Part shown: in pieces, positions 14,157-30,948 of the stretch
Numbering within the stretch: the stretch's first letter is position 1
How the letters are laid out: every line of letters begins with the position of its first letter
Virus record (IMG/VR): IMGVR_UViG_3300022700_000179
Coordinates: 1-64,000 of that record
Reading direction: 5' to 3' (one strand)
From: a virus
Length of the DNA: 64,000 nucleotides
Notes under the pieces: model-generated
The model's database searches: none
Told to the model about the DNA's origin: nothing
What the model saw: only the letters and a program-made list of their open reading frames with translations
Position numbers and translations under genes: made by a program

Positions 14157-14191
14157 GTAAACTACACGAGTACAACGACAAGAGGGTACTG

Positions 14192-14656: not shown

Positions 14657-14876
14657 TTACCAAGAGTTTCTAACTCTTTTGCATCTGTACGACCAATTCT
14701 CCAAATTCAACTCGGTTTCTTGCGGCAGTATTCATTATGCTGATCAGGCAGGCGTTCCATTGGCGGAGTGGGATAGACTACTTTCACGGACCAAGACTCA
14801 GATTATAAAGGACATCGGTAGTTACATGTCGCGTGTTGCCGGATATTCTGCTGTAAGGGATCAACAAATTGAGTGA
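14640..14876 (+). CDS. Hypothetical small protein
   Basis: 78 aa from ATG 14640, inside the end of the previous gene; the ATG at 14625 in the same frame is less likely. It is helical and has no motif. Its TGA overlaps the TTG start of the following zinc-ribbon gene. Confidence 0.55.
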   Translation: MSGNPDYQEFLTLLHLYDQFSKFNSVSCGSIHYADQAGVPLAEWDRLLSRTKTQIIKDIGSYMSRVAGYSAVRDQQIE

Positions 14877-15589: not shown

Positions 15590-15926
15590 CTCTTGAACTG
15601 CTAGACTCCGTGCGTTGCGGCGTATCTTTGGTGGGGTGGGGTGTGAATATACCGTAGCTATTCGTAGGTACTGATTAGGTATCAAAAGAATGCGGTCTGG
15701 TGAAGATAGGGTCTGACGGTACTATTATAAAATCGGGTCTTGAACACAAAGACCGTACTTTATGCACGGTAGTAAAGTCTGTGTATCCGGAGGCTGCACA
15801 TATCACTACCTGTTTTCCTGCCTATTCTGTAATAGTAAAATACTATTGTTATTATGTACCCTTCCAGTGCAGCTTCCATTTGCTAGTTACATATGGCGAA
15901 ATTATGGAAACAAGGAGGTTGATTTT
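15590..15926 (+). other. Intergenic stretch without a confident gene
   Basis: About 340 nt. An ORF with GTG 15700 runs to 15993 across the start of the next gene but has no ribosome binding site and its second half is a frame shadow. No promoter of good quality or terminator hairpin was found. It may be a long leader of the next gene. Confidence 0.4.
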
Positions 15927-16181
15927 ATGTCCAAATCAACGCAGGATGGTTACCACCGTCTTTCCACTTTTGAAGATTTTGTGGAGACCATAAATTGTAT
16001 AGAACAGATAGATACCGTAAAATATTCGTGTAAAAACCCAGTCGAGAGCAAGCCCGTATATGTAGCTCTATGGTCGACCAAGCTTAACAAAGGTTTCGGC
16101 GGTTCCTACGTATCCAAAAATACATTTGATAAACTAAAGGCAAAATATGACGCGGATCTCGTTTTTGTGCGAACGTTGTAG
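15927..16181 (+). CDS. Hypothetical protein (84 aa)
   Basis: ATG 15927 has an excellent AAGGAGG 7 nt upstream; the longer ORF from 15762 is rejected for that reason. The product contains SKPVYVALWSTKLNKGFGGSYVSKNTFDKL. No known family was recognised. It is followed 8 nt later by a promoter. Confidence 0.65.
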   Translation: MSKSTQDGYHRLSTFEDFVETINCIEQIDTVKYSCKNPVESKPVYVALWSTKLNKGFGGSYVSKNTFDKLKAKYDADLVFVRTL

Positions 16182-16189
16182 AAAAGTGC

Positions 16190-16217
16190 TTGACTTTTAT
16201 GTGGTGTTGGTTGTACT
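16190..16217 (+). promoter_or_regulatory. Sigma70-like promoter
   Basis: TTGACT (16190-16195), 16-nt spacer, TGTACT (16212-16217). It lies just before the genes 16269 and 16543 (PARP-like). Confidence 0.6.
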
Positions 16218-16268
16218 GTGCCTATCGATGTATTTTCACTTAATACAATTGCAAAAGGACAGCGCGCC

Positions 16269-16589
16269 ATGTGTCTGCTGATACAAGATCAACAATTACG
16301 GTCTGATGTTAAGGTTGTAGTTTCCGCATTTACCGGGGAGAGGCGGACGTTTACTGGCTACGAGATTTACAAGGAGTTACGGGCTTCCGGGAACGTGCCG
16401 GCGAACAGAACTAGGTTACATGTCAGTTTTCACGTCCGTGAGCTGTTTAATGCCCGAGACCCTGCCTTTCGTGCGTATGGGTCCTATCCGGTACCGGAAG
16501 GGCCGTTGCTGTTCTTTCCCGTGCCGGAAGAGGTCTTGAACCATGGGGACGAAATCATTCAAGAAATCAAAGAGAAGACATCAACCTAA
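16269..16589 (+). CDS. Hypothetical protein (106 aa)
   Basis: ATG 16269 follows AAAGGACAGCG; the in-frame GTG 16218 coincides with the promoter and is rejected. Residues 20-65 (FTGYEIYKELRASG…HVSFHVRELF) resemble a small winged-helix layout. The C-terminal 47 nt overlap the PARP-like gene, indicating coupling. The function is unknown; an immunity or regulatory partner of the ADP-ribosyltransferase is conceivable. Confidence 0.6.
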   Translation: MCLLIQDQQLRSDVKVVVSAFTGERRTFTGYEIYKELRASGNVPANRTRLHVSFHVRELFNARDPAFRAYGSYPVPEGPLLFFPVPEEVLNHGDEIIQEIKEKTST

Positions 16590-17364
16590 CAGAACCCCAA
16601 CCGAACAAGAGTTGTTCGGTAAATCCAGGCGTTATCGGTACATAGGCGACTCTGGCCCCTCGATATCTGGGTGTACACTGGTTGGCATTTATCGTAATAG
16701 AGTACCCGGTTATATCACTCCTCTGATGGAGAGAATCGGAAATATAGAATATGGTTGGCATGGTACTAGCGCAGACGACCTTAAAAGTATAGCCAGGGAC
16801 GGATTGCTGCGTCCCGTATCTATACGCAGGCGAGGGTTAAAGGCCAAGCGGGTGTTGGGCAGCATGTTCGGACCCGGGATCTACGTGTCACCTTCAATTG
16901 CAAAAGCTTCCACGCACGCAGTTTCTTCCGGCTTCAAATTCTTACTACGTTGTTTGGTATCTTTAGGCACTCCATTGTATCCAACTTCAACGGGTAATAA
17001 GCGGCAGTTTTGTGGTGAAGGACTACCATACGACTCTGTCGTGGCCAACGCCGGTGCGCAATTGGTCGGTTCGTGGGTTTCCAACTTGCGACACGCTGAG
17101 TGGGTTGTATACGATAACCAGCAACTGACAGTTGACGAGATTTACGTATACACAAGAGTACCGCAGTCTGCGGCGCGAAGACCGATTTACTGGGGTCGGT
17201 CGGGTAAAAGGGCAGTTTATGTTCTACATCATCCTTGTAAAAGAGAAGGTAAAACATGTGTTTACGCCTACCATTACTCTGGTTGCATTAAGCATAACAA
17301 AAAAGCTGGATGTAGTGTGAATGGCATGCAATTTTGCCGAGATTTCCGTTTGTCCAGAACGTGA
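16543..17364 (+). CDS. PARP-like ADP-ribosyltransferase
   Basis: 273 aa. The H-Y-E triad of PARP-type enzymes is visible: GWHGTS (His73) in the NAD-binding site, FGPGIYVS (Tyr114) and HAEWVVYDNQQ (Glu186), the last matching the NEYIVYxxxQ signature of PARP catalytic domains. A basic N-terminal extension of about 30 residues and a Cys-rich C-terminal tail (CKREGKTC…CIKHNKKAGC) flank the domain. It would transfer ADP-ribose from NAD to a protein or nucleic acid. The upstream overlapping gene may be a partner. It is the best supported of three ART-like proteins here. Confidence 0.75.
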   Translation: MGTKSFKKSKRRHQPNRTPTEQELFGKSRRYRYIGDSGPSISGCTLVGIYRNRVPGYITPLMERIGNIEYGWHGTSADDLKSIARDGLLRPVSIRRRGLKAKRVLGSMFGPGIYVSPSIAKASTHAVSSGFKFLLRCLVSLGTPLYPTSTGNKRQFCGEGLPYDSVVANAGAQLVGSWVSNLRHAEWVVYDNQQLTVDEIYVYTRVPQSAARRPIYWGRSGKRAVYVLHHPCKREGKTCVYAYHYSGCIKHNKKAGCSVNGMQFCRDFRLSRT

Positions 17365-17416
17365 AGAAGTACTGTAAACTATAGTGTACACATACCTTCA
17401 TGGAAAGGAGTTCGAG

Positions 17417-18070
17417 ATGCGGAAGTTGACTTTTCTTTCTGCTGTTCTGTCTTTGTTTTTGTTGGGGTGTCCACCGCCCAATCCGGATAACCCTAAAGAC
17501 AAGTATGCTCCCGGTTTTACCACAGTAACGATGGGTAAGCTTGTTGTACAGACAGCTTATACTGGGTTCAAGAGCTACGTTTCTGTAAAGCAGAACGAGT
17601 GCAATGATGTTGTCTGCGCGAAGCTGCACCCAAATAAAGAGTCCGAAGCATATAAGTCGTGTATGGCTGAGGATCACTCGGGGGTGTCTGAATTCAAAGT
17701 ATGCTACGGAAAATTGGGGGATGTAGAGAAGATTATTGACAAGTCTGTCCCTTTGGCGCTATCACTTCTTAATGATGTGAAGGAGGTGCTGGAGTTGGCG
17801 GTAGACTACGAAGTCGCCAAAGAGGCAGCAAAGAAAGCCGAGGATCCAGAGAAGCTAAAGAGCTTTTGTGGTACTGTTTATCCAGCTAAAGCTGGGGATG
17901 AGTATGAGAAGTGCCTACAAGGTAAACCTCTTAAGCGTCTTGACTGGGTTGCTTTGCTTAGTGGCCGTGCGTGTACGGTTTACTACGCGCTAGCTTTCGT
18001 ACCGAAGCCCTACAACAAATATACAGACCCTGTACGTATGTGGTTTAAGGGTTACGGTAACTGTAAGTAA
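17417..18070 (+). CDS. Lipoprotein of unknown function
   Basis: 217 aa from ATG 17417 with AAAGGAG. The N terminus MRKLTFLSAVLSLFLLGC is a type II signal peptide with lipobox LLGC; the mature part starts CPPPNPDNP. Six further Cys in the mature chain suggest disulfides in the periplasm. CTGTAAACTATAGTG lies 45 nt upstream. A phage lipoprotein could block superinfection or alter the envelope. No family was recognised. Confidence 0.75.
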   Translation: MRKLTFLSAVLSLFLLGCPPPNPDNPKDKYAPGFTTVTMGKLVVQTAYTGFKSYVSVKQNECNDVVCAKLHPNKESEAYKSCMAEDHSGVSEFKVCYGKLGDVEKIIDKSVPLALSLLNDVKEVLELAVDYEVAKEAAKKAEDPEKLKSFCGTVYPAKAGDEYEKCLQGKPLKRLDWVALLSGRACTVYYALAFVPKPYNKYTDPVRMWFKGYGNCK

Positions 18071-18102
18071 TTAGTAAAAGCGGGCATATTACTGCCCGTG
18101 TT

Positions 18103-18172
18103 GCGGGATGGTGAAGTGGCATCACGCCTGGTTCATGCCCAGGAGATCGCAGGTTCAATCCCTGCTCCCGCT
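18103..18172 (+). tRNA. tRNA with anticodon CAT (elongator Met or Ile2)
   Basis: Anticodon stem CCTGG/CCAGG around TTCATGC, D-arm GTGA/TCAC and TTCAATC T-loop are present. The acceptor GCGGGAT/CTCCCGC has one mismatch. The stem lacks the three G-C pairs of initiators, and the GCGGGA body with discriminator T resembles tRNA-Gly. CCA is not encoded. Confidence 0.85.
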
Positions 18173-18187
18173 ATCAAGGGTATTGAA

Positions 18188-18430
18188 ATGCAAGTTTACA
18201 TTGTTGGGTACTCATTTCCACGTAGTATGCTCTCCGGTGGTTTTGGTTGGGGGCAGTTAGGAATAGTAGGCACCAAAGAAGAAGCGCTAAAGTATTGTAC
18301 TGAACGGGATCATTTTTACATTGAGTGCGAGCTTGGTGCAGTTCTTACGAGTGGTGATATGCTAGATAAGGCCCACTTGGAAGGTAGAATGGTCTTCCCG
18401 AACCGTAGAGCTGTGTCTCAAGATAACTAG
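18188..18430 (+). CDS. Hypothetical protein (80 aa)
   Basis: ATG 18188 lies just after the tRNA; the stop overlaps the first base of tRNA-Asp. It contains GWGQLGIVGTKEEALKYC, a short alpha/beta pattern. No motif was recognised. It is sandwiched between two tRNAs. Confidence 0.6.
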   Translation: MQVYIVGYSFPRSMLSGGFGWGQLGIVGTKEEALKYCTERDHFYIECELGAVLTSGDMLDKAHLEGRMVFPNRRAVSQDN

Positions 18431-18504
18431 GGGATGTGGTCCAGTTGGCTAAAGACGCTGCCCTGTCACGGCAGAGAACGCGGGTTCAAGTCCCGTCATC
18501 CCCG
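18430..18504 (+). tRNA. tRNA-Asp(GTC)
   Basis: GGGGATG/CATCCCC acceptor, anticodon stem CTGCC/GGCAG with GTC and TTCAAGT T-loop are present. The discriminator is G and CCA is not encoded. Confidence 0.95.
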
Positions 18505-18557
18505 TTACATACCAACAGCTGCTTGTGTTTTCGTCTGGAAGCGGGTTCGTGAGCAGT

Positions 18558-18629
18558 TGTTGGTTTTATGTCTCTCGTTTAGAGAATCGTTTCTGTTGGT
18601 TTTATGTCTCTCGTTTAGAGAATCGTTTC
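18558..18629 (+). repeat. Perfect tandem repeat, 2 x 36 nt, directly before tRNA-Glu
   Basis: 18558-18593 and 18594-18629 are identical. Each unit contains TCTCT-CGTTT-AGAGA, a 5-bp hairpin. The array ends 1 nt before tRNA-Glu. It may be a tRNA-processing signal, a regulatory hairpin pair or the scar of a duplication. Confidence 0.9.
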
Positions 18630-18630
18630 C

Positions 18631-18702
18631 GGCCCGGTAGGCAAGCGGTTAAGCCATCGGCCTTTCAAGCCGACATCGCGGGTTCAACTCCCGTCCGGGT
18701 CA
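18631..18702 (+). tRNA. tRNA-Glu(TTC)
   Basis: GGCCCGG/CCGGGTC acceptor, anticodon loop CTTTCAA (TTC) and TTCAACT T-loop are present. The discriminator is A and CCA is not encoded. Confidence 0.95.
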
Positions 18703-18756
18703 TCTTCCTCAGACAAATCCTGTTGGCGTCATTATTTTCTTCCTTGAGGTTGACTG

Positions 18757-19242
18757 ATGGGTAAAAAAGACATAGTATTCAGTGTTACTAAGAAGGATCT
18801 GCAAATAGACTACTTTAGATGTGGTGGTAAGGGAGGTCAGAAAGTTAACAAGACCTCTTCTGGATGTCGCATTCGCCACGTTGCTTCTGGTGCGGTTGCC
18901 GAATCTAGAGAGGAGCGGTATCAGCATGCAAACAAAAAGATTGCGTTTAGGCGCCTGGTTGCATCCAAGGAATTTCAAAGTTGGGCGCGTATCCAGGCAG
19001 CGGCGATAGAACAGGGTTATCGAGATGTGGAGGAGAAGGTAGAGAAGTCGATGGCGCCTAATAATCTAAAAGTTGAGCATATAACCACTTATACTTGCGA
19101 CACTTGTGGGAGATCTGAAACTATCACGTCAGTAGATCCTTCTATTGCACCGGAATGGCTTGTGTATGATGGGGACGATCTGTTAAATGCCAATCGGTAT
19201 AGCTGTACTTCGTGTCTAGGTAGGGAGAAGGGGAATGAGTAA
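18757..19242 (+). CDS. GGQ-domain peptide chain release/rescue factor (PrfH- or ArfB-like)
   Basis: 161 aa. CGGKGGQKVNKTSSGCRIRH contains the GGQ motif (residues 26-28) that triggers peptidyl-tRNA hydrolysis on the ribosome; only the catalytic domain-3 type fold is present, as in ArfB and PrfH. The C-terminal third has CDTCGRSE…CTSCLG, a zinc ribbon replacing the usual basic tail. In bacteria PrfH pairs with RtcB2 to free and repair ribosomes with cleaved 16S rRNA (known for that family); here an RtcB gene lies at 29776 and a tmRNA at 13756. A role in rescue of damaged ribosomes is inferred. Confidence 0.8.
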   Translation: MGKKDIVFSVTKKDLQIDYFRCGGKGGQKVNKTSSGCRIRHVASGAVAESREERYQHANKKIAFRRLVASKEFQSWARIQAAAIEQGYRDVEEKVEKSMAPNNLKVEHITTYTCDTCGRSETITSVDPSIAPEWLVYDGDDLLNANRYSCTSCLGREKGNE

Positions 19243-19489
19243 GCGTGCGTTAAGACGGCACCACCGGCGCCGACTTATGCAAAAACGTAAGAACTACTGG
19301 TCCGGTGTTGCAAAGCACCAGCCAAAAATGCTCCGCAGAATTGTTGACACTCCAACGCCATGTTCTTGCTGTATGTGCAGTGGTAATTTCGAGCGTAGGG
19401 AGTTCAATAAAACTACCCGGCAAGAATGTGCTGCAGATATAGCAGAAAAGGAGCAGATTGATGCCCAGCGCAAAATTGGCGAGCGTTGA
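19235..19489 (+). CDS. Small basic zinc-finger phage protein
   Basis: 84 aa, overlapping the GGQ gene by 8 nt. An Arg- and Lys-rich N terminus (RRHHRRRLMQKRKNYW) is followed by VDTPTPCSCCMCSGN and a C-terminal helix with TTRQE. This CSCxMC layout is common in small phage proteins of unknown function; the basic region suggests binding to RNA or the ribosome. Confidence 0.75.
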   Translation: MSKRALRRHHRRRLMQKRKNYWSGVAKHQPKMLRRIVDTPTPCSCCMCSGNFERREFNKTTRQECAADIAEKEQIDAQRKIGER

Positions 19490-19838
19490 CGATCTGTACA
19501 AGTACCTTTCGCTTGGTTTTTTGGTCCGTGTTTATTCTGACGAGGTAACAGAAGTTTCCGACCTTATTTGTACAACCTTGGAAATTTATAATGCTGGCGG
19601 ATTTGGCTACGGTTTCATGTTTGAGGGATTTTGTCAATACTTTATCTATAATGGCAAGAATGAGTTTAATCCAACAAATCCAAGAATGTCATCTGCCTCT
19701 TTTTCTGAGGAAGAAAAGGCATCTTTTTGTGAGGCTCTAGCTGATCACCCCAAGGTTACTAAGGTCGAACTCGGGGATGAAGTAGACCTGCGTTTTATGT
19801 TCAACTCTTTCTTTAATCGCGAAAAGGTTTTTAAATGA
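19461..19838 (+). CDS. Hypothetical protein (125 aa)
   Basis: ATG 19461 has AAAAGGAG upstream and starts inside the previous gene. The sequence is mixed alpha/beta with FEGFCQYFIYNG and acidic segments. No motif was recognised. It overlaps the next gene by ATGA. Confidence 0.6.
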   Translation: MPSAKLASVDDLYKYLSLGFLVRVYSDEVTEVSDLICTTLEIYNAGGFGYGFMFEGFCQYFIYNGKNEFNPTNPRMSSASFSEEEKASFCEALADHPKVTKVELGDEVDLRFMFNSFFNREKVFK

Positions 19839-20062
19839 ATAAACGTCAGATGTATCTCATGTCAATACCGATGGGTACAGTGCTGCCTAAGAAGATGTTT
19901 GATGAAGTTCTTACGGTGCTGTTGTCCGAAGAGGAAAATGAAAAGAAACCTTCGGCAATCTTATCATCTGAACATGATGATGATGTAGTCGGCCTGAACG
20001 ATGAAAGTCATCCATTAGCAGCTTTTGTTCGTGCGGTCATAAACAAATTGAACGATAGTTAG
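19835..20062 (+). CDS. Hypothetical protein (75 aa)
   Basis: It starts in an ATGA overlap with the previous stop. It has a charged middle (EEENEKKPSA, EHDDDVVG) and a helical C terminus. No recognised family. Confidence 0.55.
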   Translation: MNKRQMYLMSIPMGTVLPKKMFDEVLTVLLSEEENEKKPSAILSSEHDDDVVGLNDESHPLAAFVRAVINKLNDS

Positions 20063-20130
20063 TGTGCTAGTTGGTATGAGCGTTTTGGTGATAGTGGGAT
20101 AACTGTACAAATTATTGGGGAGTATTAGTG

Positions 20131-20334
20131 ATGCCTATTTACGAGTTCAAATGTAATGAATGCGGATCCGTTACCGAGATTGAACGTGCGATTACAAAAC
20201 GTACGGATCCATACACTTGTCCTGACTGCGGTTCCCTAAAAACTGAACAGCAGATTTCAAAGTGCACCTTTACGCTGGTCGGGGGAGGTTGGGCTCTTAG
20301 CGGCTATTCCAGTAGTGAAATAAAGTCAGGGTAG
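20131..20334 (+). CDS. FmdB-type zinc-ribbon protein
   Basis: 67 aa from ATG 20131. The sequence MPIYEFKCNECG…TCPDCGS is the FmdB family pattern of two CxxC knuckles in the first 40 residues, followed by a Gly/Ser-rich tail (GGGWALSGYSS). Family members are small putative regulators found in bacteria and phages. The function in the phage is unknown. Confidence 0.8.
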   Translation: MPIYEFKCNECGSVTEIERAITKRTDPYTCPDCGSLKTEQQISKCTFTLVGGGWALSGYSSSEIKSG

Positions 20335-20414
20335 TAATGGTATGCCCATGGAATGGACCTTGGTAGCCGTGTTTCTTATATCAAAGTTGCTGTCTGACTT
20401 GTAAGGAGGTTCCA

Positions 20415-21233
20415 ATGCGTCTAAAGTTATGTTTGCTGGTGTTTATATACTGTCTATTCTTTTCTTGTACCACCCCGACTTTTAATACGTGTCCAAAGGT
20501 TACTGTACGGAGTCCGCAGTGCCCATTTGGTAGGCCGGTCACAATTTATAAAAATGCCGAGCGTAAGATAGCTCCAATTTTAGTTACTCGTGAGCAGTAT
20601 ACGCTAGCCTATGATCCCGACAGCCGTGTACCTATTTGGGCTTGTGAAACAGTATCGTCCAACGAATTAGGTGGGTCTGCAGAACGTAAGAACAGTATTT
20701 CCTTAGATCCTTTAATTCCACGGAAATATCAGTCTGCGTCATCTGTATACACGAATTCTGGCTATGACCGGGGACATATGATTCCAGCAGCCAACCAGCG
20801 GTGGGATCAGGAATTATCGGACAAATTATTTTATGTAAGTAATATAGCCCCTATGCCAAGGAGCTTTAACCGAGGTGTCTGGCGCGTATTTGAGGGCTGG
20901 ATTAGGGGGTGGGCAAAAACCCACGAAGACGCATATGTAATTACAGGATCTTTCAACGTGGACGCTGATCCAGTGGTTATCAAGAAAGAGTTGGTTGTGC
21001 CGTCGCATTTCTACAAGATTCTGGTCTCTAAACGCGGGACCAAAGAGTATCATGCTATCGGGTTTTTATTTGATATTAAGTCGGAGTATAAGAGTCCATA
21101 TGATTGGGAAAATCAGGTTGTAGCAATTGATTTGATTGAAGTGATGGCGGGAATAGATTTAATGCCGAGTCTCTCTCCGTATAAGGAAACGGAACTTGAA
21201 CTCAAAGCAGCAAGGTTCGAGCTATGGCAATGA
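20415..21233 (+). CDS. DNA/RNA non-specific endonuclease (NUC1 family), exported lipoprotein
   Basis: 272 aa with AAGGAGG upstream. The signal peptide ends in a lipobox (LFFSC, Cys18). YDRGHMIPAANQ contains the DRGH catalytic motif (His121), and FNRG supplies the metal-binding Asn (about 152). NUC1 enzymes cut DNA and RNA without sequence preference using one metal ion. Lipid anchoring in the envelope would place the enzyme in the periplasm, where it could destroy DNA of superinfecting phages or free DNA after lysis. The location is inferred from the lipobox. Confidence 0.85.
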   Translation: MRLKLCLLVFIYCLFFSCTTPTFNTCPKVTVRSPQCPFGRPVTIYKNAERKIAPILVTREQYTLAYDPDSRVPIWACETVSSNELGGSAERKNSISLDPLIPRKYQSASSVYTNSGYDRGHMIPAANQRWDQELSDKLFYVSNIAPMPRSFNRGVWRVFEGWIRGWAKTHEDAYVITGSFNVDADPVVIKKELVVPSHFYKILVSKRGTKEYHAIGFLFDIKSEYKSPYDWENQVVAIDLIEVMAGIDLMPSLSPYKETELELKAARFELWQ

Positions 21234-21478
21234 TATCTCTGCACCAAACAGTAACAACGCGAACTGTTTACCGGATCTTTCCACTGTTTTTCTGGCATAC
21301 ATGTGAAAAATGTGGGGATGATTTTCGTAGAGAGTGGGGATGGAAATTTAAGGTATTGTTCGTACACCGGGGAATTACAATAGTGCACGAAGGTGGTACC
21401 GATCTCTATCTTTGTTGCACCTGTGCGCCAGACCTTGCGGCGGCATCTCTACTGGCAGAGACATACCCACGGTGGTAA
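21224..21478 (+). CDS. Zinc-binding miniprotein (84 aa)
   Basis: It starts 10 nt inside the end of the nuclease gene. CEKCGDDF and CCTCAPD form two cysteine pairs about 40 residues apart, a split zinc ribbon. It stops 2 nt before the next gene. Tight coupling to the nuclease suggests co-expression, though no immunity function is visible. Confidence 0.65.
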   Translation: MAMISLHQTVTTRTVYRIFPLFFWHTCEKCGDDFRREWGWKFKVLFVHRGITIVHEGGTDLYLCCTCAPDLAAASLLAETYPRW

Positions 21479-21480
21479 GA

Positions 21481-21971
21481 TGCCGGCTTATCTGATAAAA
21501 TATAAAGGTAGTCATTACAAGTTGGCAGGTATTCCTAATTTGGAATGGACTGGTGAAACTACGTTTATGGGCGGCAAGGTATATAAACTGTCAGTTGCGC
21601 TCGATCTGTTTGTCCATTTTACCACCCCGAGTAGGGCACAGGAGATTCTTAAAAGGGGGTTGTTGTTAATGCGCCCTCCATACAAGAAGTTTGGGACGGA
21701 CACAGTGAACGCTGTTTCTGCTTTGTATGGGTCTTACACACCGGGCGTACAGACCTCGCATTTAGGTGAAGAGGCAGCGCAGGTTGCAGTTGTATTCCGT
21801 ACAACGTTACCCCCTAATTATGGCTATGTAGAGGAGGTCGTCTGGGACAGTGACGTACCTCTTAAGTATCCCGAAGTTGTTGACGTGCCAACTGCAATCG
21901 CCCTGTTGAATTCATCTCCTGTAGTCATAGGAGATCAGGATATGGTTGTGTATTCTGAAGATACAGCTTGA
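21481..21971 (+). CDS. Tag-module protein with ADP-ribosyltransferase-like core
   Basis: 163 aa. ATG 21481 is preferred over the long upstream frame because the tag module then starts the protein: MPAYLIKYKGSHYKLAG. A second weaker copy (GGKVYKLSV) follows. FVHFTTPSRAQEILKRGLLL then resembles the H-x-T…I-x-x-x-G-L start of ART folds, but no clear Tyr and Glu of the triad were found. It may be a degenerate or divergent ART. The gene lies before tRNA-Ile. Confidence 0.5.
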
Positions 21972-22002
21972 CAGATCGACTCTTTTTGTTACGTCTTATT
22001 TT

Positions 22003-22077
<75 letters not shown>

Positions 22078-22082
22078 AGTTC

Positions 22083-22167
22083 GGTGCGGTAGTCCTAATT
22101 GGAAAGGCGGCGGGCTGTAACCCCGCTGGGATGATTCCCGTTCCAGGTTCGAGTCCTGGCCGCACCA
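22083..22167 (+). tRNA. tRNA-Tyr(GTA)
   Basis: GGTGCGG/CCGCACC acceptor, anticodon stem GCGGG/CCCGC with GTA, a tyrosine-type long variable arm and TTCGAGT T-loop are present. The discriminator is A and CCA is not encoded. Confidence 0.95.
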
Positions 22168-22280
22168 TCTGGGTTCCTTTATCTGTAAACTGCCATTTGT
22201 GGATAAGGGCCAGTGTACTGTGGCAGCAGGCACGAAGTCGCATAGCCGGACTCCGAAACCGGTATGGTGCGAGCCCAGAT
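22167..22280 (+). ncRNA. tRNA-like structured RNA without a T-arm
   Basis: It sits between tRNA-Tyr and tRNA-Phe. ATCTGGG (22167-22173) pairs perfectly with CCCAGAT (22274-22280) as a 7-bp acceptor-like helix. Inside are CTGCCA/TGGCAG (22190-22195 with 22221-22226) and an extended hairpin 22238-22272 (CATA/TATG and CCGG/CCGG) ending in ACTCCGAAA, which presents CTCCGAA like an anticodon loop with U33 and anticodon CCG (Arg). No TTCRA T-loop exists. The Tyr discriminator A would be shared. It could be a decoy or an aberrant tRNA-Arg. Confidence 0.45.
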
Positions 22281-22309
22281 TTACTTTCTGTTTCGTGTTT
22301 TTGTTATAC

Positions 22310-22382
22310 GGCACCTTAGCTCAACTGGTAGAGCGCGCGATTGAAAATTGCGTTGTTCTCGGTTCAATTCCGAGGGGTGCCA
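22310..22382 (+). tRNA. tRNA-Phe(GAA)
   Basis: GGCACCT/GGGTGCC acceptor, anticodon loop TTGAAAA (GAA) and TTCAATT T-loop are present. The discriminator is A and CCA is not encoded. Confidence 0.93.
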
Positions 22383-24248: not shown

Positions 24249-25616
24249 ATGTACAAATTGACAGAGCTGTCGGATGAAATTAAGCAGGAACTCTCAAACT
24301 TGACTTCACGTCAGCGCCGTATCGTGCTAAACGGACTGGTCGCCAAATTGGCCGCAGCCCAAAAAACAGGAAAGGTGTCATACAGGTACGATATCTGCCC
24401 TATTTGTGGGGATGTGGGTTCTACTAAGGAACTTAATAAATGCGGTGAGTGTTACATCTTCCGATCATGTAGTAAACCATTTGACTCTGGATTCAAAAAC
24501 GACCACGAAATTTCGTACAAGTACTTTTCTAAAATGTTAGTATTCATGCTGCACCACGAGTGTGAGAGTATTCCGGAGTGTGTTGTAGTGGGTGGTAACT
24601 GGGATCCGCGTTATGGGCGTCCATCTAAATTGGCCAAGAGCTTGGCAGATAATATGAGCGCGGATTTGTTCAACGGCGGGCTAATTCACGGCGGAGTTGG
24701 GGTGCCCGACCTCGTTTCTATTAGTCGTATATTGGGGCACAAACTCATTGTGTGGATGCCTAACGTACCTAATGCGGTAGCCAAAGTGTACCCCGAAAAA
24801 CGCAGAGGTGCTACCTTGGTCGTCTCCAAGGTAATGCGTGAAGGGTACACCTCAGCTGACGCTGCCAAACGTATCTTTGCTATGCACGGCAACGCCGTTA
24901 TCGAAATCTATACTAGCGAAGATGGGCAGTACAAATTTCGACTGGCAGATGCGTTGAATAACACCTGGACGGAATCGTCTAGTATTAAAGACGTTGCCAG
25001 CGGCATTAAAGATCTTCATGTGTGGTCACGAAAACAGAAGAGAATTGGGTCTGTTCGGTCAATCAACTGGCCAGAGGACAAGGCGACAGTAAAGTACTTA
25101 CATCGATTTTTGACTATTAACCGGAAAGTCCAGAGTCAGGTAACAAAGAGGGTTGGAGAGCGATACTTTGGAAATCTGTCTACGCGCTGCATGAAGTTGT
25201 TTCCATCAATGAGCGACGTTGCGGGTGTGTATGTGTCACCCCGGAATTCGGACAAGCGCAGCTTAGAACCCGCGGATATGGTAAGGGCATGGCTTGAAGA
25301 TGGGAAGGTTGTGTACTTTCATCCCGATTATCGAGTTAAGCCTAGTGTAGACACTGCGGTGCAGTTAGAGCTGTACTCCAGGTCCGATATCTGTTTTATG
25401 ATTCATGGGCACGCGTTCGTTAAAGGGGCGCCTACTACGTGGGAGTACTTTCCCTGTGGCGACCTGCGGGAGGTACTCCCCCTTTGGGATCTAATTAACG
25501 ATGGGCCCTCCTCCGGAGCGATCAACCTCAAGAATCATGGGTTTTTGCTGTATTCTCAGCATTTACGCGACCTAGATCGTCTGGTTAGCCGGTTGCAGTT
25601 TGAAAATCGACTGTAA
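24249..25616 (+). CDS. Two-domain protein: CoaB/flavoprotein-like and class II aldolase-like
   Basis: 455 aa with GGAGG upstream. Residues 45-75 have a zinc knuckle (CPIC…CGEC). Residues about 110-240 (VVVGGNWDPRYGRPSKLAKSL…NGGLIHGGVGVPDL) look like the Rossmann region of a CoaB/DFP-type protein. The C-terminal part (MIHGHAFV…YFPCGDLREVLPL…INLKNHGFLLYS) matches the conserved end of class II aldolase/adducin proteins, including the metal-ligand HGH and KNHG. It is adjacent to the radical SAM gene and may act in the same base- or cofactor-modifying pathway. Confidence 0.5.
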   Translation: MYKLTELSDEIKQELSNLTSRQRRIVLNGLVAKLAAAQKTGKVSYRYDICPICGDVGSTKELNKCGECYIFRSCSKPFDSGFKNDHEISYKYFSKMLVFMLHHECESIPECVVVGGNWDPRYGRPSKLAKSLADNMSADLFNGGLIHGGVGVPDLVSISRILGHKLIVWMPNVPNAVAKVYPEKRRGATLVVSKVMREGYTSADAAKRIFAMHGNAVIEIYTSEDGQYKFRLADALNNTWTESSSIKDVASGIKDLHVWSRKQKRIGSVRSINWPEDKATVKYLHRFLTINRKVQSQVTKRVGERYFGNLSTRCMKLFPSMSDVAGVYVSPRNSDKRSLEPADMVRAWLEDGKVVYFHPDYRVKPSVDTAVQLELYSRSDICFMIHGHAFVKGAPTTWEYFPCGDLREVLPLWDLINDGPSSGAINLKNHGFLLYSQHLRDLDRLVSRLQFENRL

Positions 25617-25802
25617 CTCGAGCCTCCACTTGGCTTCGTAGGTGATATGGTGGGTTGGGCAGCAACCAATAACGCCCCTAACTTACTGTTGAGGGGACTG
25701 TGTCCGTAGAGTGGGTACGTCACTCCCTGCTCTTGACTTTGGCACCAAAGGCAGCACCTTGTAGTGGTGTACGGCAGAACTTAAAATAGGAGCAGCAACA
25801 GG
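25617..25802 (+). promoter_or_regulatory. Leader of the cas gene with a CRISPR-repeat-like hairpin
   Basis: There is no ORF. 25667-25698 (AATAACGCCCCTAAC, loop TTACT, GTTGAGGGGAC) folds into CCCCT-AAC/GTT-g-AGGGG and shares CAATAACGCC with array repeat 8 and the GTTGAG end with all array repeats. A TTGACT at 25733 has only poor -10 partners. AATAGGAGCAGC supplies the ribosome binding site. A repeat-like hairpin in the effector's own leader may mediate feedback. Confidence 0.5.
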
Positions 25803-27692
25803 ATGTCTACAAAGGTATATCGTTACGGACTGCTTGCACCTACCGAAAACGCTGATGTAGTTGCAGACCAGATACGGCACGCCCATAGCTACTATAACAA
25901 GCTGGTAGAGTTAGAGCGTAGGCGCCGGGATCAGATCCGTGGTATTATTGATACTGAAACCGGTGATGTCTTGGGGGCAGCTAAGCAGGCCGACGCGGAA
26001 CGTCAGTCTGCACGTAAAGCCTTAGCGCGCGAAAATGCAGAAAAGCGAAGTCGCAAAAAAGCTGACCCGAAGCTGCAGAAAGCTCTTAAGGATGCTAGTA
26101 AAAAGAGGAAGAAGGCGCTAGCAACTCTCAAGAAAGCCCGAAGCAAAGCTTTCAAGGAACACAAGGAAACAATCCGGTCCATCAATCAACGGCACGGCAA
26201 TCGTTTGCGTGAAGCGCGCAAAAATACTCCTACTTACTGGGGTACCTATACGATTGTGGAGGATGCTCTCAAAGCTTCTGCTAACGACAAGATGCTGTGG
26301 GATCGACGAGATTGGTTTTCACCTTCAGACCCTGAGTTCAAGCGGTGGAGGGGCGAAGGCCGTCTTTCTGTACAGGTCCAAAAAAGTCCACAGGATAAAA
26401 AGCCTGGGTTGGCGTCGGAGGCAGTCTTCCAAGAAAATAACCTTGTGTGGGTTGATCCAGTTGACGAGCGGGCGTGGTGTGATCCGGTACGTGGAGTACG
26501 TCGTCGGTTCAGTCGAACCAAGTTGCACTTTCGAATTGACTCTGACGAAAATAGGAAACCTGTTTGGACGGAGTTCCCGATGATTATGCACCGGCCTCTG
26601 CCTGAGGGTGGGCGGGTAAAGAGGGTAACGATCCATAAAAAACGTATCGGGACGCGGGTAGAGTGGTCCGCGCACTTCACGGTGAATACAGACGCCGTAA
26701 TTCCAGAGAGTCGTCCTGTCAGTGGCATGGTGGCTATTGATGTAGGATGGCGCAAGCTGGATAGCGGGGCCATTCGGGTAGCTGCTTGGGACGCTTCTGA
26801 TGGTAAGTCTGGTTACCTGGAAGTTTCGCCAGAGCTAATCAGTGCTCTGCAGTACAACAGGCAGTTACGTTCTATTCGGAACAATAATTTCAACGAGATC
26901 ATTTCTCAGTTGGTAGAGCACTTCAAGCATGCGCACGTGCCCAGCTGGCTATGCGAGGAGCTGGGTAGGAAAGAGAAACTAACGCCTGAGAAAGCCCGGG
27001 CGGTTCTAGCGCAGCTTCGATCTATGGATCGACTTGCATACCTGACTAGACGTTGGGCCGAGGAGGGAGTCACCGAAAAGCACGCTTATATGTACCAGCG
27101 GTTGGAGGAGTGGCGGTACCACGATTTTCATTTGTATAGTTGGGAATCAGACCAAGCAAAGAAATCTCAGCGGCGCCGTAAAGATCTGTACCGTAATTTT
27201 GCTGCGGAGTTGTCCCGCACATACGAAACATTGGTTCTAGAGGACTTTAAATTAGACCGGTTGGTACGGCGCAACGATGTCGGTGCTGAATCTGAAAACG
27301 AGACAGCTCGCGCAAACCGACATATGGTGGCGTTGTACGAACTGCGGGATAGTTTAATCAACGCTTTCAACCGTTGCGGTGCAGTAGTTATAGTTGACCC
27401 GAGGGATAGTACTCGTACATGCCATGTTTGTGGGGTGGTTAACGATTGGGACCAGGCTGCCGAGCTTGAACACAGGTGCGTAGCATGTGGTACTATTTGG
27501 GACCAAGACGACAACGCGGCTCTAATTTTGCGGCGTCGTGGTGCGGGGTTTGGGGGTGGCGACGGGGCCGGAACCGCTCGCGGGAGTAAAAGTGGTAACG
27601 ATTATACCAGGAAGGCGCCGAGAAAGCGGCCCTCCCGGAGCTACCAGGAGCTGCACCGCCGGCGCCGAGAGTCGGCCGCTCGCAGTTGGTAG
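25803..27692 (+). CDS. cas12m-like: Cas12m-like type V CRISPR effector with intact RuvC triad
   Basis: 629 aa. N-terminal VADQIRHAHSYYNKLVELE, then a highly charged coiled coil (about 55-140), YWGTYTIVEDALKAS, GEGRLSVQVQ and a PMIMHRPLP strand region follow the layout I recall for Cas12m (former V-U1/c2c4). RuvC-I is AIDVGWRK (Asp313), RuvC-II LVLEDF (Glu480), RuvC-III DQDDNAA (Asp569), with zinc Cys 540/543 and 559/562. In the Mycolicibacterium enzyme, as I recall it, the first Asp is His, and Cas12m binds DNA without cutting; here the triad is complete, so cleavage is possible. The C terminus is an Arg/Gly-rich tail. No Cas1, Cas2 or Cas4 is nearby. Confidence 0.85.
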   Translation: MSTKVYRYGLLAPTENADVVADQIRHAHSYYNKLVELERRRRDQIRGIIDTETGDVLGAAKQADAERQSARKALARENAEKRSRKKADPKLQKALKDASKKRKKALATLKKARSKAFKEHKETIRSINQRHGNRLREARKNTPTYWGTYTIVEDALKASANDKMLWDRRDWFSPSDPEFKRWRGEGRLSVQVQKSPQDKKPGLASEAVFQENNLVWVDPVDERAWCDPVRGVRRRFSRTKLHFRIDSDENRKPVWTEFPMIMHRPLPEGGRVKRVTIHKKRIGTRVEWSAHFTVNTDAVIPESRPVSGMVAIDVGWRKLDSGAIRVAAWDASDGKSGYLEVSPELISALQYNRQLRSIRNNNFNEIISQLVEHFKHAHVPSWLCEELGRKEKLTPEKARAVLAQLRSMDRLAYLTRRWAEEGVTEKHAYMYQRLEEWRYHDFHLYSWESDQAKKSQRRRKDLYRNFAAELSRTYETLVLEDFKLDRLVRRNDVGAESENETARANRHMVALYELRDSLINAFNRCGAVVIVDPRDSTRTCHVCGVVNDWDQAAELEHRCVACGTIWDQDDNAALILRRRGAGFGGGDGAGTARGSKSGNDYTRKAPRKRPSRSYQELHRRRRESAARSW

Positions 27693-27714
27693 CACAGTTA
27701 GTCGTACTTACACT
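27686..27714 (+). promoter_or_regulatory. Promoter of the CRISPR array
   Basis: TTGGTA (27686-27691), 17-nt spacer, TACACT (27709-27714). Transcription would start near 27721, 10 nt before the first repeat. The spacer carries GTCGTACT (27701-27708), which is also found after degenerate repeat 11 downstream. Confidence 0.65.
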
Positions 27715-27730
27715 GTTTTTTGTGCCCGCT

Positions 27731-28397
27731 GTAACAACGCCTGCTCAACGGCGTAGAAGTTGAGACACGATAGCAAAACTATTTGAGCTTGTAATGGCTG
27801 GTAACAACGCCTGCTCAACGGCGTAGAAGTTGAGACACCTCTCGTCTGTTTGGGGTTTTTATCCCATACTATGTAACAACGCCTGCTCAACGGCGTATAA
27901 GTTGAGACTCTGTTCGGTCGTCGAGAGACAGGATGAAAGCGCGGTAACAATGCCTGCTCACCGGCGTAGAAGATGAGACCAGTCCATAAGCGGTTCGTCC
28001 CCCGTGTAGCGGCCGTAACAACGCCCGCTCAACGGCGTAGAAGTTGAGACCAGGTCAGCGAGCCGCTCATGCAATCCCACTGCAAGTAACAACGCCCGCT
28101 CAACGGCGTAGAAGTTGAGACTCTGTGCGTCCGATTCCGACCTGGTCGTGCTCTACACAACAACGCCCGCTCAACGGCGTATAAGTTGAGACGTATCGGA
28201 TCTGCGTGGCATAATCGATCAATAACGCCTGCTCAACGGCGTAGAAGTTGAGACTTTGTAGGTACCGATCCCCCAGATCCAAACCACATACAACAACGCC
28301 TGCTCAACGGCGTAGAAGTTGAGACTTTGCAGAGGGTCGTCGCCAAAGTGTACGCGGCCCTGCAACAACGCCTGCTCAATGGTGTATAAATTGAGAC
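27731..28397 (+). CRISPR. CRISPR array, 10 repeats of 36 nt and 9 spacers
   Basis: Repeats start at 27731, 27801, 27873, 27944, 28015, 28086, 28157, 28219, 28290 and 28362. The 3' part contains the hairpin CTCAAC-GGCGTAGAA-GTTGAG and ends GAC. Spacers are 34, 36, 35, 35, 35, 35, 26, 35 and 36 nt. Repeat 4 is degenerate (a C-A mismatch in the stem); repeat 10 has CTCAAT/ATTGAG and is the terminal type, so the array reads in the plus direction from the cas gene. The first two bases of the repeat vary (GT, AC, TC, GC). Spacer targets cannot be determined here. Confidence 0.97.
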
Positions 28398-28476
28398 GGA
28401 TCTGGTTTTGTATGTTTTTTGCGAAGTCGTACCAGTACAACGGTTTTTCAAGTTGTAACGCGAGTACGGACGGTGT

Positions 28477-28505
28477 TTGCACGTAATCATATGCTATGCT
28501 ATACT
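28477..28505 (+). promoter_or_regulatory. Promoter of the degenerate mini-array
   Basis: TTGCAC (28477-28482), exactly 17 nt, TATACT (28500-28505). The start is near 28512, inside degenerate repeat 11. It lies in a 108-nt spacer-like interval after the last array repeat. Confidence 0.75.
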
Positions 28506-28614
28506 GGATTAGTACCTGCTCAATGGGGTATAAATTGAGACGCGTCGTACTGCACAGACTCAATCTTGCTCAGCAGTTTACAAGCTGAGATGCCTCTGTA
28601 GGAGACATCTTTTG
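28506..28614 (+). ncRNA. crRNA-like small RNA with two degenerate repeats
   Basis: Between the promoter and a terminator lie repeat 11 (28506-28541, stem CTCAAT-GGGGTATAA-ATTGAG), a 14-nt spacer (28542-28555) and repeat 12 (28556-28591, stem CTCAGC-AGTTTACAA-GCTGAG). The 6-bp stem and 9-nt loop of the array repeat are kept while both strands change together, evidence of selection for structure. The RNA would be about 100 nt. It resembles regulatory crRNA-like RNAs such as CreR (known from type I systems); it could also be a tracrRNA. The role is inferred. Confidence 0.65.
28588..28613 (+). terminator. Terminator of the crRNA-like RNA
   Basis: AGATGCCTC (28588-28596) pairs with GAGACATCT (28602-28610), one C-A mismatch, loop TGTAG, followed by TTTT. 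It reuses the 3' end of degenerate repeat 12. Confidence 0.6.
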
Positions 28615-28623
28615 TGCAGTTAT

Positions 28624-28659
28624 GTACCAATACCAGCTCAGCGGTATTAGAGCTGAGAT
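28624..28659 (+). repeat. Third degenerate CRISPR repeat, in the 5' leader of the next gene
   Basis: CTCAGC-GGTATTAGA-GCTGAG keeps the 6-bp stem and 9-nt loop of the array repeat and ends GAT. It lies 17 nt before ATG 28676, so it would be in the mRNA leader or, if ATG 28622 were used, in the coding region. It may allow binding by the Cas protein. Confidence 0.6.
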
Positions 28660-28675
28660 GCCGGGGTCATCAATT

Positions 28676-29029
28676 ATGCGGGTAAAGGATGCTTATGACG
28701 TATGGAATTCGATAATAGAACGAATTCGCTCTTTGGAGGACGATTTACGTGAAACAGAGCGTGAACTCTCGCGTGTGTTGGAAGAAGAAACTGACGCGCG
28801 TGTCTCTTTAATTTCAGCCGCCGTTCACAATACCTACTGGCCCGACAAGGCTTTTGCGGAAGAGGTGGTACAATTGTCAGAGGTGCATTGGCCCGACGAA
28901 CTTGCTTCTATACGTGAAAATAGCCACATCGATACGCATGAAGTGAAACCCGAAGTTGGTCGTACCAGACGGAGGTCGTTTGATGGGCGCATTCCAGTAC
29001 CTCCTAGTCGACCGAGGAAAAAGACCTAG
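28676..29029 (+). CDS. Coiled-coil protein downstream of the CRISPR array
   Basis: 117 aa from ATG 28676 with GGGG upstream; ATG 28622 would translate the repeat-like hairpin and has no ribosome binding site. Residues about 10-42 are a charged coiled coil (IIERIRSLEDDLRETERELSRVL), and the C terminus is Arg/Pro-rich. No cas or anti-CRISPR family was recognised. Its place and shared leader hairpin suggest an accessory or regulatory function of the CRISPR locus. Confidence 0.6.
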   Translation: MRVKDAYDVWNSIIERIRSLEDDLRETERELSRVLEEETDARVSLISAAVHNTYWPDKAFAEEVVQLSEVHWPDELASIRENSHIDTHEVKPEVGRTRRRSFDGRIPVPPSRPRKKT

Positions 29030-29030
29030 T

Positions 29031-29059
29031 TTTACATGTGAACTGTAAACTGGTATAGT
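29031..29059 (+). promoter_or_regulatory. Promoter TTTACA-N17-TATAGT
   Basis: TTTACA (29031-29036), 17 nt including CTGTAAAC, TATAGT (29054-29059). It drives the triple-HTH gene and probably RtcB. A leader of about 200 nt follows (29060-29263) containing the hairpin GCATG-TTTAAT-CATGC and an overlapping 40-aa ORF (29155-29277) of low confidence. Confidence 0.7.
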
Positions 29060-29263
29060 ATATACACATAAGCCAGTAGGGCATAAACTGAGGCCACCGT
29101 CCTATCTAGTTACAAACCCAGCGATTCACAAGTTGGGGTGATGAATTTGGCACGATGCTCTTACGCATGTTTAATCATGCAGGCTTTTGTGCAGCCGAGC
29201 CGAAGTCCAAGCTGTTGCTATACAAAGGACCGCTTTTAATTGGCCAAATCTACCAGATCAGAC

Positions 29264-29767
29264 ATGGGAGTTCCTAAAAAGAAAAAGGAGTATGCTGAAG
29301 CACTCCGTCTTATACGTGAGGGATGGCCCCCACACGATATTGCTACAATGGTGGGTGTAGCCTACCGTACTGTATTGAAGTGGAGTAAAGACGTACCTCC
29401 CGAAGAACGTAAATACGAACGGCGGTATTACAAAGCAAAAGAGCTGCGGGAACAAGGTTGGAACAGAGGGCAGCTGGCCAGGTACTTTGGGGTTAACGTT
29501 CGGACCATTTCCAAGTGGTTAGGCGTTAGCAAAGTAAAAGGGGTACATTATCCAAGAGAATACCGTGAGGCAATCCGACTGTACACGGAAGAGGGTTGGA
29601 AGGTGGCAGATATTGCTGATAGTCTTTCTGTTTCTATTCCTACTGTTTACCGTTGGGTGCGTGATGTAAAAAGGGGGCCCTTTCCTCCATACCCAAGGAA
29701 GTCCGCCGTTTGCCAAAAAGAGAAAGAGCGGGAAAGTAAAAAATGGGAAGGATGGGATGATGTTTAG
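29264..29767 (+). CDS. DNA-binding protein with three tandem helix-turn-helix units
   Basis: About 167 aa from ATG 29264; TTG 29240 is an alternative start. Three repeats of about 45 residues share the pattern A-x-x-L-x-x-x-G-W…I-A…V-x-x-x-T-V-x-x-W: GWPPHDIATMVGVAYRTVLKW, GWNRGQLARYFGVNVRTISKW and GWKVADIADSLSVSIPTVYRW, each a resolvase/transposase-type HTH. The C terminus is charged. It is likely a transcription regulator that reads a long or repeated operator. Its position between the CRISPR locus and RtcB makes both candidates for control. Confidence 0.75.
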   Translation: MGVPKKKKEYAEALRLIREGWPPHDIATMVGVAYRTVLKWSKDVPPEERKYERRYYKAKELREQGWNRGQLARYFGVNVRTISKWLGVSKVKGVHYPREYREAIRLYTEEGWKVADIADSLSVSIPTVYRWVRDVKRGPFPPYPRKSAVCQKEKERESKKWEGWDDV

Positions 29768-29775
29768 AGGTTGTT

Positions 29776-30948
29776 ATGAGACAAGTAATCACTACAGGTA
29801 AAGTACCAATCAAGGCTTGGTTGGATGATATCGAAAATGGCGCGATGCAGCAGGCGAGCAATGCAGCAGATCTGCCCTTTGCTTTTAAGCACGTAGCCCT
29901 CATGCCGGATTGCCACCAGGGCTATGGTGTGCCTATTGGTTGTGTTTTGGCCACGCGTGGGGCAGTAGTGCCAAATGCAGTTGGTGTGGATATTGGGTGC
30001 GGTGTCGTAGCTTGCGACACGGGTATAATTGATATCTCCCAAGCTAAGCTAGAAAAGATTGTAGCAGATATCCGAAAAGTGATTCCGGTGGGTTTTTCCC
30101 ACCAAAAGGAAATGCAGTCGGTAGATGACATGCCGAAAGCAGCTTGTGTATCTGGCGCAGAGGCAATGCCTGTGGTATCCCAAGAATACAGGAGTACACG
30201 GAAACAACTGGGTACACTTGGTGGCGGCAACCACTTTATCGAGATTCAACGGGGCAACGGCACTATCTGGGTAATGATCCACTCCGGTTCCAGGAACCTC
30301 GGCAAGAAGGTTGCAGATCACTATAACAAACTGGCTTCCGATCTGAATTCAAAGTGGTACTCTTCGGTGACAAAGGAAAAACAATTAGCCTTTTTGCCTG
30401 TAAACACTATAAAAGCGCAGCAGTACCTTGCAGAGATGGGATACTGTCTCGAGTTTGCCAAGTGCAGTCGAGATTTAATGCTACGTTGCGTGTTGGGATG
30501 TGTGGGGGACGCAGTTGGTGATTTTTCACCAGAGCCGTCGGTCGACGTTCATCATAACTACGCTGCTCTTGAAAACCATTTTGGCCAGAATGTGTGGGTT
30601 CACCGTAAAGGTGCAACTCGCGCACGTACCGACGAGTTAGGAATTGTTCCCGGCAGTCAGGGCACGAAGAGTTATATTGTACGTGGTCTTGGCTGTAAGG
30701 ACAGCTTTGAGTCATGTTCGCACGGTGCCGGGCGCAAAATGAGTAGGAAAGCTGCGCAGCGCGAGCTTAGTCTCAAGCAGCAGCTCCAACTTCTGAAAGA
30801 CAGAAATGTGCTGCATTCAATTCGTAGCAATAAAGATTTGGACGAGGCTCCTGGCGCCTACAAAAACATCAGGGACGTTATGCAAAATCAGCAGGATTTA
30901 GTTGATATGGAAGTTAAACTTCATCCTCTTGCTGTGGTAAAAGGATGA
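29776..30948 (+). CDS. rtcB: RtcB-type RNA ligase
   Basis: 390 aa, near family length. MPDCHQGYGVPIGCVLATRG, VGVDIGCGVVACDTG, GGGNHFIEI, MIHSGSRNLGKKVA and CSHGAGRKMSR carry the conserved Cys/His/Asp metal ligands and the catalytic His that is guanylylated. RtcB joins 2',3'-cyclic phosphate and 5'-OH RNA ends using GTP and Mn. In a phage it can repair tRNAs or rRNA cut by host nucleases. With the GGQ factor at 18757 it recalls the RtcB2-PrfH ribosome-repair pair, and with Ro60 and Y RNAs at 40 kb the bacterial rsr-yrl-rtcBA operon. No RtcA or archease was seen. Confidence 0.93.
   Translation: MRQVITTGKVPIKAWLDDIENGAMQQASNAADLPFAFKHVALMPDCHQGYGVPIGCVLATRGAVVPNAVGVDIGCGVVACDTGIIDISQAKLEKIVADIRKVIPVGFSHQKEMQSVDDMPKAACVSGAEAMPVVSQEYRSTRKQLGTLGGGNHFIEIQRGNGTIWVMIHSGSRNLGKKVADHYNKLASDLNSKWYSSVTKEKQLAFLPVNTIKAQQYLAEMGYCLEFAKCSRDLMLRCVLGCVGDAVGDFSPEPSVDVHHNYAALENHFGQNVWVHRKGATRARTDELGIVPGSQGTKSYIVRGLGCKDSFESCSHGAGRKMSRKAAQRELSLKQQLQLLKDRNVLHSIRSNKDLDEAPGAYKNIRDVMQNQQDLVDMEVKLHPLAVVKG

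What the first reader, a model, noticed from the sequence alone, without database searches (positions are those of the whole stretch)
28477..28614. A separately promoted mini-array of degenerate repeats whose stems covary with the CRISPR repeat
TTGCAC-N17-TATACT is followed by two repeat-like hairpins and a terminator. The array stem CTCAAC/GTTGAG becomes CTCAAT/ATTGAG in repeats 10 and 11 and CTCAGC/GCTGAG in repeats 12 and 13, always with a 9-nt loop. Compensatory change on both strands shows selection for structure, not simple decay. The spacer between repeats 11 and 12 is only 14 nt, as in crRNA-like regulatory RNAs that bind without cutting. A tracrRNA role is the alternative.
Basis: partly seen in the sequence, partly recalled or inferred. 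Interest (0 to 1): 0.87.

Follow-up and report, generated by a model that had tools for sequence, protein, structure and literature searches.

The report
Diverged crRNA units beside phage Cas12m
At the far end of a phage's own DNA-binding CRISPR (Cas12m) array sit four strongly mutated guide-RNA units whose folded shape has been kept by matching mutations on both sides of the stems, and related phages carry whole arrays of such units, or scatter them over the genome.

Summary
The repeats and the stem covariation are real. The stems belong to the pseudoknotted crRNA scaffold of Cas12m (type V-M). The ORF 25803-27692 just upstream is a Cas12m with a D-E-D RuvC site, like MsCas12m, which binds DNA without cutting it. 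Both scaffold helices are kept through double-sided changes in the diverged units: 97.5% of cells paired, against 90.5% shuffled and 25-41% slid. A further unit, '10b' (28424-28459), fills the gap between repeats 10 and 11, so the tail is continuous (10, 10b, 11, 12, 13), not clearly a separate mini-array. The promoter is weak (8/12) and no terminator was found. The 14-nt spacer is no regulatory mark: in phage V-M loci unit spacing is bimodal (about 48 and 72 nt), and the short class still leaves a guide of about 18 nt. Tail guides show no self-target or cas-promoter match above chance. Most likely they are old crRNAs still loaded by Cas12m. Comparison uncovered something larger: one phage has a 28-unit array of covarying diverged units with a 48-nt period, and another has about 33 scaffold units scattered over 178 kb, five behind one shared promoter-like sequence with five different guides.

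The parts
25803..27692 (+). cas12m effector gene, 629 aa, RuvC residues D313 / E480 / D569 (D-E-D)
   Evidence: PADLOC Cas12u1 1e-100; PDB Cas12m chain 23vw E 1e-76; D313 aligns with MsCas12m D274
27731..28397 (+). CRISPR array, units 1-10 (36-nt repeats, spacing 62-72 nt)
   Evidence: (families D1, D2)
   Evidence: descriptor scans; outside the array the own genome gives one hit, on the - strand at relaxed settings
28477..28505 (+). promoter-like TTGCAC-N17-TATACT; a start about 7 nt downstream would fall at the 5' end of stem 1 of unit 11
   Evidence: 8/12 matches; background-level motif
28506..28541 (+). unit 11, diverged scaffold (PK CTCAAT/ATTGAG 6/6; stem 1 4/5)
28542..28558 (+). inferred 17-nt guide of unit 11
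   Evidence: position directly 3' of the scaffold; 17-bp heteroduplex of Cas12m2 (PMC10442227); inference
28556..28591 (+). unit 12, diverged scaffold (PK CTCAGC/GCTGAG 6/6; stem 1 4/5; ends AT instead of AC)
28592..28608 (+). inferred 17-nt guide of unit 12
   Evidence: inference from scaffold position
28624..28659 (+). unit 13, diverged scaffold (PK 6/6; stem 1 5/5 plus one more pair; both helices compensated)
   Evidence: P 0.0009
28660..28676 (+). inferred 17-nt guide of unit 13; runs into a candidate start codon (28676) of the next ORF
   Evidence: inference; ORF 28622-29029

Best explanation
The finding is the leader-distal, diverged end of a phage-encoded type V-M CRISPR array. Its units 10, 10b, 11, 12 and 13 are separate crRNA units whose sequence has drifted while the pseudoknotted scaffold read by Cas12m was kept by selection. 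They are transcribed from the array or from a weak internal promoter, bound and trimmed by Cas12m, and used with guides of about 17-20 nt to hold Cas12m on target DNA and block transcription without cutting. Shown: the gene family, the scaffold geometry, compensatory change in both helices, and the same behaviour in other phage V-M loci. Inferred: transcription, loading, guide length and function. Not known: the targets.
For: Cas12m identity. Scaffold geometry matches the Cas12m2 cryo-EM crRNA: six-pair PK from -22..-17 to -8..-3, G(-23):A(-2), C(-1), 17-bp heteroduplex (PMC10442227). D-E-D Cas12m orthologues bind but do not cut dsDNA, and need no tracrRNA (PMC11013384). Covariation in the window. 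Independent replication in phage G002 (L013), whose 28 units were picked by sequence similarity alone: 46 cells with both-side changes vs 14 shuffled, 0/500; PK 95.8% paired. Unit spacing is bimodal, 45-51 and 70-78 nt, and short-spaced units are the more diverged ones (P 3e-8 over all loci; 0.018 without the two all-short loci; units of a locus are not independent). No Cas1 in the own record or 14 other V-M phage records, so no phage-borne adaptation genes are seen to renew the repeats.
Against: No transcript data. No credible target was found for any guide in phages or plasmids or in the own genome above chance. Units 12 and 13 end AT where Cas12m2 reads C(-1) base-specifically. Stem 1 of units 10b, 11 and 12 has one mismatch each. 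The compensated pairs in the window are few (5), and units 10/11 and 12/13 share theirs by descent. No close relative carrying the locus was found to test conservation of the tail.
Confidence: 0.62

Rival explanations
1. Plain decay: the tail units are dead, unexpressed repeats at the leader-distal end of the array, as in many CRISPR arrays.
For: Leader-distal position and rising divergence (18-26 of 30 core positions kept); no guide target found; one mid-array repeat carries an uncompensated double change.
Against: Random substitutions in equal number rarely keep both helices (P 0.0009-0.015 per unit); 0/500 shuffles reach the covariation; whole arrays of equally diverged, covarying units exist in other phages.
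Confidence: 0.17
2. Regulatory crRNA-like RNA: one or more tail units guide Cas12m to a phage or cas promoter (CreR-like), or the scaffold itself acts in cis in an mRNA leader (unit 13 sits at the start of the next ORF).
For: Cas12m blocks transcription by binding (PMC11013384, PMC10442227); in other V-M loci units sit in the 5' leader of cas12m itself: three in L038, five in L031/G020, one in L085.
Against: No tail guide has a PAM-side seed of 6 nt or more in the cas12m promoter or leader, and own-genome seed matches are close to chance: 4 vs 2.9 expected for the window phage, 15 vs 9.5 in G002, 5 vs 3.7 in G020. No self-target was found for the cas12m-leader units tested.
Confidence: 0.14
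3. RNA decoy (Racr-like): the tail units occupy a host or rival Cas12m without a useful guide.
For: Racrs are promoter-proximal viral repeat mimics, some active against type V-A (PMC10651486).
Against: Here the units lie beside the phage's own functional-looking cas12m and array, and sequestering the phage's own effector would be self-defeating; solitary repeat units of the Racr kind stand without cas genes.
Confidence: 0.05
4. tracrRNA.
For: Only the position next to the array.
Against: Units are in direct, not anti-repeat, orientation; no inverted copy of the repeat within 26500-29500; RNA sequencing of Cas12m RNPs excluded tracrRNA (PMC11013384).
Confidence: 0.02

Closest known systems
Type V-M CRISPR-Cas, MsCas12m of Allomeiothermus (Meiothermus) silvanus plasmid pMESIL02
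   Same: Effector 33% identical with the same D-E-D site; array just downstream; repeat with the same pseudoknot; repeats in that plasmid array also vary, including at its end
   Different: Here the carrier is a phage; the tail is far more diverged, with both helices compensated
MmCas12m2 crRNA scaffold (cryo-EM, PMC10442227)
   Same: Same pseudoknot topology: six-pair PK ending two nt before the guide, G before the PK arm, A(-2)
   Different: One extra loop nucleotide; -1 is U in units 12 and 13
Virus Rctr197k Cas12m locus (KX853510, annotated 'transposase' plus CRISPR)
   Same: Phage Cas12m (33-35% identical) followed by an array whose distal units are diverged and include a 49-nt spacing
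   Different: Distal units less diverged
CRISPR-derived regulatory RNAs (CreR type)
   Same: Diverged crRNA-like units near a cas gene
   Different: No promoter complementarity found here
Racr / viral solitary repeat units (PMC10651486)
   Same: Viral crRNA-like repeat units, some behind a promoter
   Different: Racrs stand without cas genes and mimic the host's repeats

Membership tests
Type V-M (Cas12m) crRNA units | Cas12m effector next to the array | tested here: met
Type V-M (Cas12m) crRNA units | Pseudoknotted scaffold (stem 1 plus six-pair PK, A at -2) in the tail units | tested here: met
   PK 6/6 in 10b, 11, 12, 13; stem 1 4/5, 4/5, 4/5, 5/5
Type V-M (Cas12m) crRNA units | C at position -1 | tested here: inconclusive
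   C in 10b and 11, T in 12 and 13; T also occurs in units of the MsCas12m array and of L013
Type V-M (Cas12m) crRNA units | Room for a 17-nt guide 3' of the scaffold | tested here: met
   From the end of unit 11 to the start of stem 1 of unit 12 is 20 nt
Type V-M (Cas12m) crRNA units | RNA is made, processed and bound by Cas12m | not testable with these tools
   needs RNA sequencing or a binding assay
CreR-type cas regulator | Guide partly complementary to the cas promoter beside a PAM | tested here: not met
   No seed of 6 nt or more from units 10b-13 in 25560-25830 or 27640-27735
Racr / solitary repeat unit | Repeat unit without cas genes, mimicking the host's repeat | tested here: not met
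   Own cas12m and array alongside
tracrRNA | Anti-repeat complementary to the CRISPR repeat | tested here: not met
   No inverted repeat of the array repeat near the locus
Separately promoted mini-array | Own promoter and terminator | tested here: inconclusive
   Promoter-like motif at background frequency; no terminator found

The most novel reading that the evidence does not exclude
In some phages the type V-M array has dissolved into hard-wired guide-RNA genes. Units lose the outer spacer sequence down to the 17-18 nt Cas12m uses, drift in sequence while keeping the pseudoknot, and are copied to new sites behind their own promoter, giving the phage a fixed, genome-dispersed set of guides for a DNA-binding repressor aimed at host or competitor genes. 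The window's tail would be an early stage, the 48-nt-period array of G002 a middle stage, and the roughly 33 scattered units of G020/G015 (five behind one shared promoter-like sequence) a late stage.
Probability: 0.35. Interest if true: 0.85.

Novelty: new variant of a known kind. Interest (0 to 1): 0.6.

Why it matters
CRISPR repeats are expected to be near identical and their distal ends to rot. Here, and more strongly in related phages, the repeats behave like a family of separate RNA genes held by structure. If the guides are used, these phages carry an RNA-guided transcription-repression programme built from an effector that does not cut, which would be a natural counterpart of CRISPR interference. 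It also means that array finders, which look for identical repeats at regular spacing, would miss such loci. The covariation gives a direct, testable map of which scaffold contacts matter for this group of Cas12m.

Tried and rejected
Self-targeting: guides of the window phage, of G002 (28 units) and of G020 (about 33 units) match their own genomes about as often as shuffled guides do. Spacer targets: no match in phages; only a 25-nt E = 2 match of spacer 5 in Azospirillum plasmids, treated as chance. Arrays of L009 and L023 against phages and of L013 against plasmids: only the L009 record itself. Close relatives of the window locus: single-protein searches with its Cas12m, the downstream ORF and the upstream ORF found none; the terminase finds one 5.5-kb fragment at 73% identity without the locus; the exact repeat is in no other viral contig and the locus has no match in plasmids. 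A hairpin upstream of cas12m (around 25665-25700) looked repeat-like by eye but has no stem 1 and did not score in the descriptor scans. TIGR-Tas arrays were considered because of short spacers and rejected because the effector is Cas12m. The paper on CRISPR-derived regulatory elements (Shmakov 2023) was not held, so comparison with it rests on general knowledge.

Full report
What is there. The window lies in a 105,713-bp virus record with a phage terminase and portal protein. The ORF at 25803-27692 (629 aa) is a Cas12m: PADLOC Cas12u1 E 1e-100, PDB Cas12m chain E 1e-76 over residues 7-576. Its RuvC residues are D313, E480 and D569; D313 aligns with D274 of MsCas12m. D-E-D Cas12m orthologues bind but do not cut double-stranded DNA (PMC11013384). 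An array of ten 36-nt repeats follows at 27731-28397.

The repeat and its shape. GTAACAACGCCTGCTCAACGGCGTAGAAGTTGAGAC forms stem 1 (ACGCC/GGCGT) and a pseudoknot helix (CTCAAC/GTTGAG) ending two nt before the guide. This is the arrangement in the Cas12m2 cryo-EM structure: PK from -22..-17 to -8..-3, A(-2), C(-1), 17-bp heteroduplex (PMC10442227), with one more loop nucleotide here.

The diverged units. A further unit, 10b, lies at 28424-28459 in the 108-nt gap between 10 and 11: PK TACAAC/GTTGTA, stem 1 4/5. In the rest of the own genome the descriptor gives one hit, at relaxed settings, so a chance hit in that gap is unlikely. The tail is therefore continuous: starts at 28362, 28424, 28506, 28556, 28624.

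Is the covariation real? On the 13 units found by sequence similarity (10b left out), 97.5% of cells pair against 90.5% in shuffles; sliding the partners gives 25-41%; 8 cells have changes on both sides against 1.8, 0/500. Keeping each unit's number of changes but placing them at random retains as many pairs with P = 0.015 (10), 0.012 (11), 0.004 (12), 0.0009 (13) and 0.002 (10b). Units 10/11 and 12/13 share changes by descent, so these are not independent. Repeat 4 carries an uncompensated double change.

Promoter and terminator. TTGCAC-N17-TATACT matches 8 of 12; 20 sites of that quality lie on the + strand of the window, and a standard scan finds 6 promoter-like sites in 7 kb against 6.8 in shuffles. 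In its favour, a start about 7 nt downstream would fall at the 5' end of stem 1 of unit 11. No terminator-like site was found there, and the 113-nt stretch folds no better than shuffles (z -0.55).

The short spacer. An alignment of four Cas12m proteins found 32 further viral loci. Spacing between neighbouring units over all loci is bimodal: 45-51 nt and 70-78 nt. Short spacings occur even between identical repeats (L015, L021). A 48-nt period leaves about 18 nt between scaffolds, enough for a 17-bp heteroduplex, so 14 nt between repeats 11 and 12 fits an ordinary V-M guide. Short-spaced units are on average more diverged (P 3e-8; 0.018 without the two loci in which nearly all are short; units within a locus are not independent).

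Related phages go further. L013 (record G002, 180 kb) has 28 units, almost all spaced 45-51 nt and nearly all different, with PK arms such as CACAGA/TCTGTG, CGTCGG/CCGACG, CGCCAG/CTGGCG and TACAGA/TCTGTA (chosen by sequence similarity, not pairing); 46 cells have both-side changes against 14, 0/500. L024 has a short regular array of 73-75-nt period and, on the other strand, five diverged units of 46-50-nt period. Records G015 and G020 (two assemblies of one phage; G020 has a terminase) have about 33 scaffold units scattered on both strands over 178 kb. Five of these share one promoter-like sequence TTGACA-N16-TAAGCT and the scaffold, after which the guides differ; the module occurs in no other viral contig. 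Cas1 is absent from all 15 records tested, though records may be fragments.

What the units do. Guides match their own genomes about as often as shuffled guides, and no tail guide has a seed of 6 nt or more in the cas12m promoter or array leader. Phage and plasmid collections give no credible target for the window's spacers. So CreR-like autoregulation and self-regulation are unsupported, and tracrRNA is contradicted (PMC11013384). The most economical reading is that tail units are old crRNAs still read by Cas12m, with unknown, probably host or competitor, targets. In L038, G020 and L085 units lie in the leader of cas12m itself, which leaves open regulation in cis.

Verdict. No paper found in the open-access library describes diverged or scattered V-M units, but that library is incomplete.

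Noticed in passing
L031/L026 and L063-L071 (records G020, G015): About 33 Cas12m scaffold units scattered over the whole phage genome on both strands; five share a promoter-like module TTGACA-N16-TAAGCT followed by different guides; several lie just upstream of a Shine-Dalgarno and start codon.
   Followed up: partly
L013:5764-7098 (record G002; also L012, L019): A 28-unit V-M array with about 48-nt period in which nearly every repeat differs but the pseudoknot covaries; array finders based on identical repeats would miss it.
   Followed up: partly
L038:3440-3587, L031:3160-3433, L085:3319-3354: crRNA scaffold units in the 5' leader of cas12m itself, down to about 25-30 nt before its start codon in the first two.
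   Followed up: partly
L024, opposite-strand units near locus positions 2422-2742: A separate cluster of five diverged units with 46-50-nt period on the strand opposite to cas12m and its regular array.
   Followed up: partly
record G016 (L027), 8793-10460 and 57322-59061: Two different Cas12m genes in one 153-kb virus record.
   Followed up: no
window 13756-14126 and 7651-22382: A phage-borne tmRNA (tag ANDNNVPMEVAEAA) and about a dozen tRNA genes, plus a tRNA nucleotidyltransferase (10294-11628) and an RtcB-like RNA ligase (29776-30948).
   Followed up: no
window 25665-25700: A strong hairpin about 105 nt upstream of cas12m (CCCCTAAC-TTACT-GTTGAGGGG) that begins with CAATAACGCC as in repeat 8 but has no stem 1.
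   Followed up: partly
window 27944-27979: Repeat 4 carries an uncompensated double change in one pseudoknot pair (C.A) in the middle of the array.
   Followed up: no
L009:637-891: Virus Rctr197k has a second CRISPR array with an unrelated repeat near the V-M locus.
   Followed up: no
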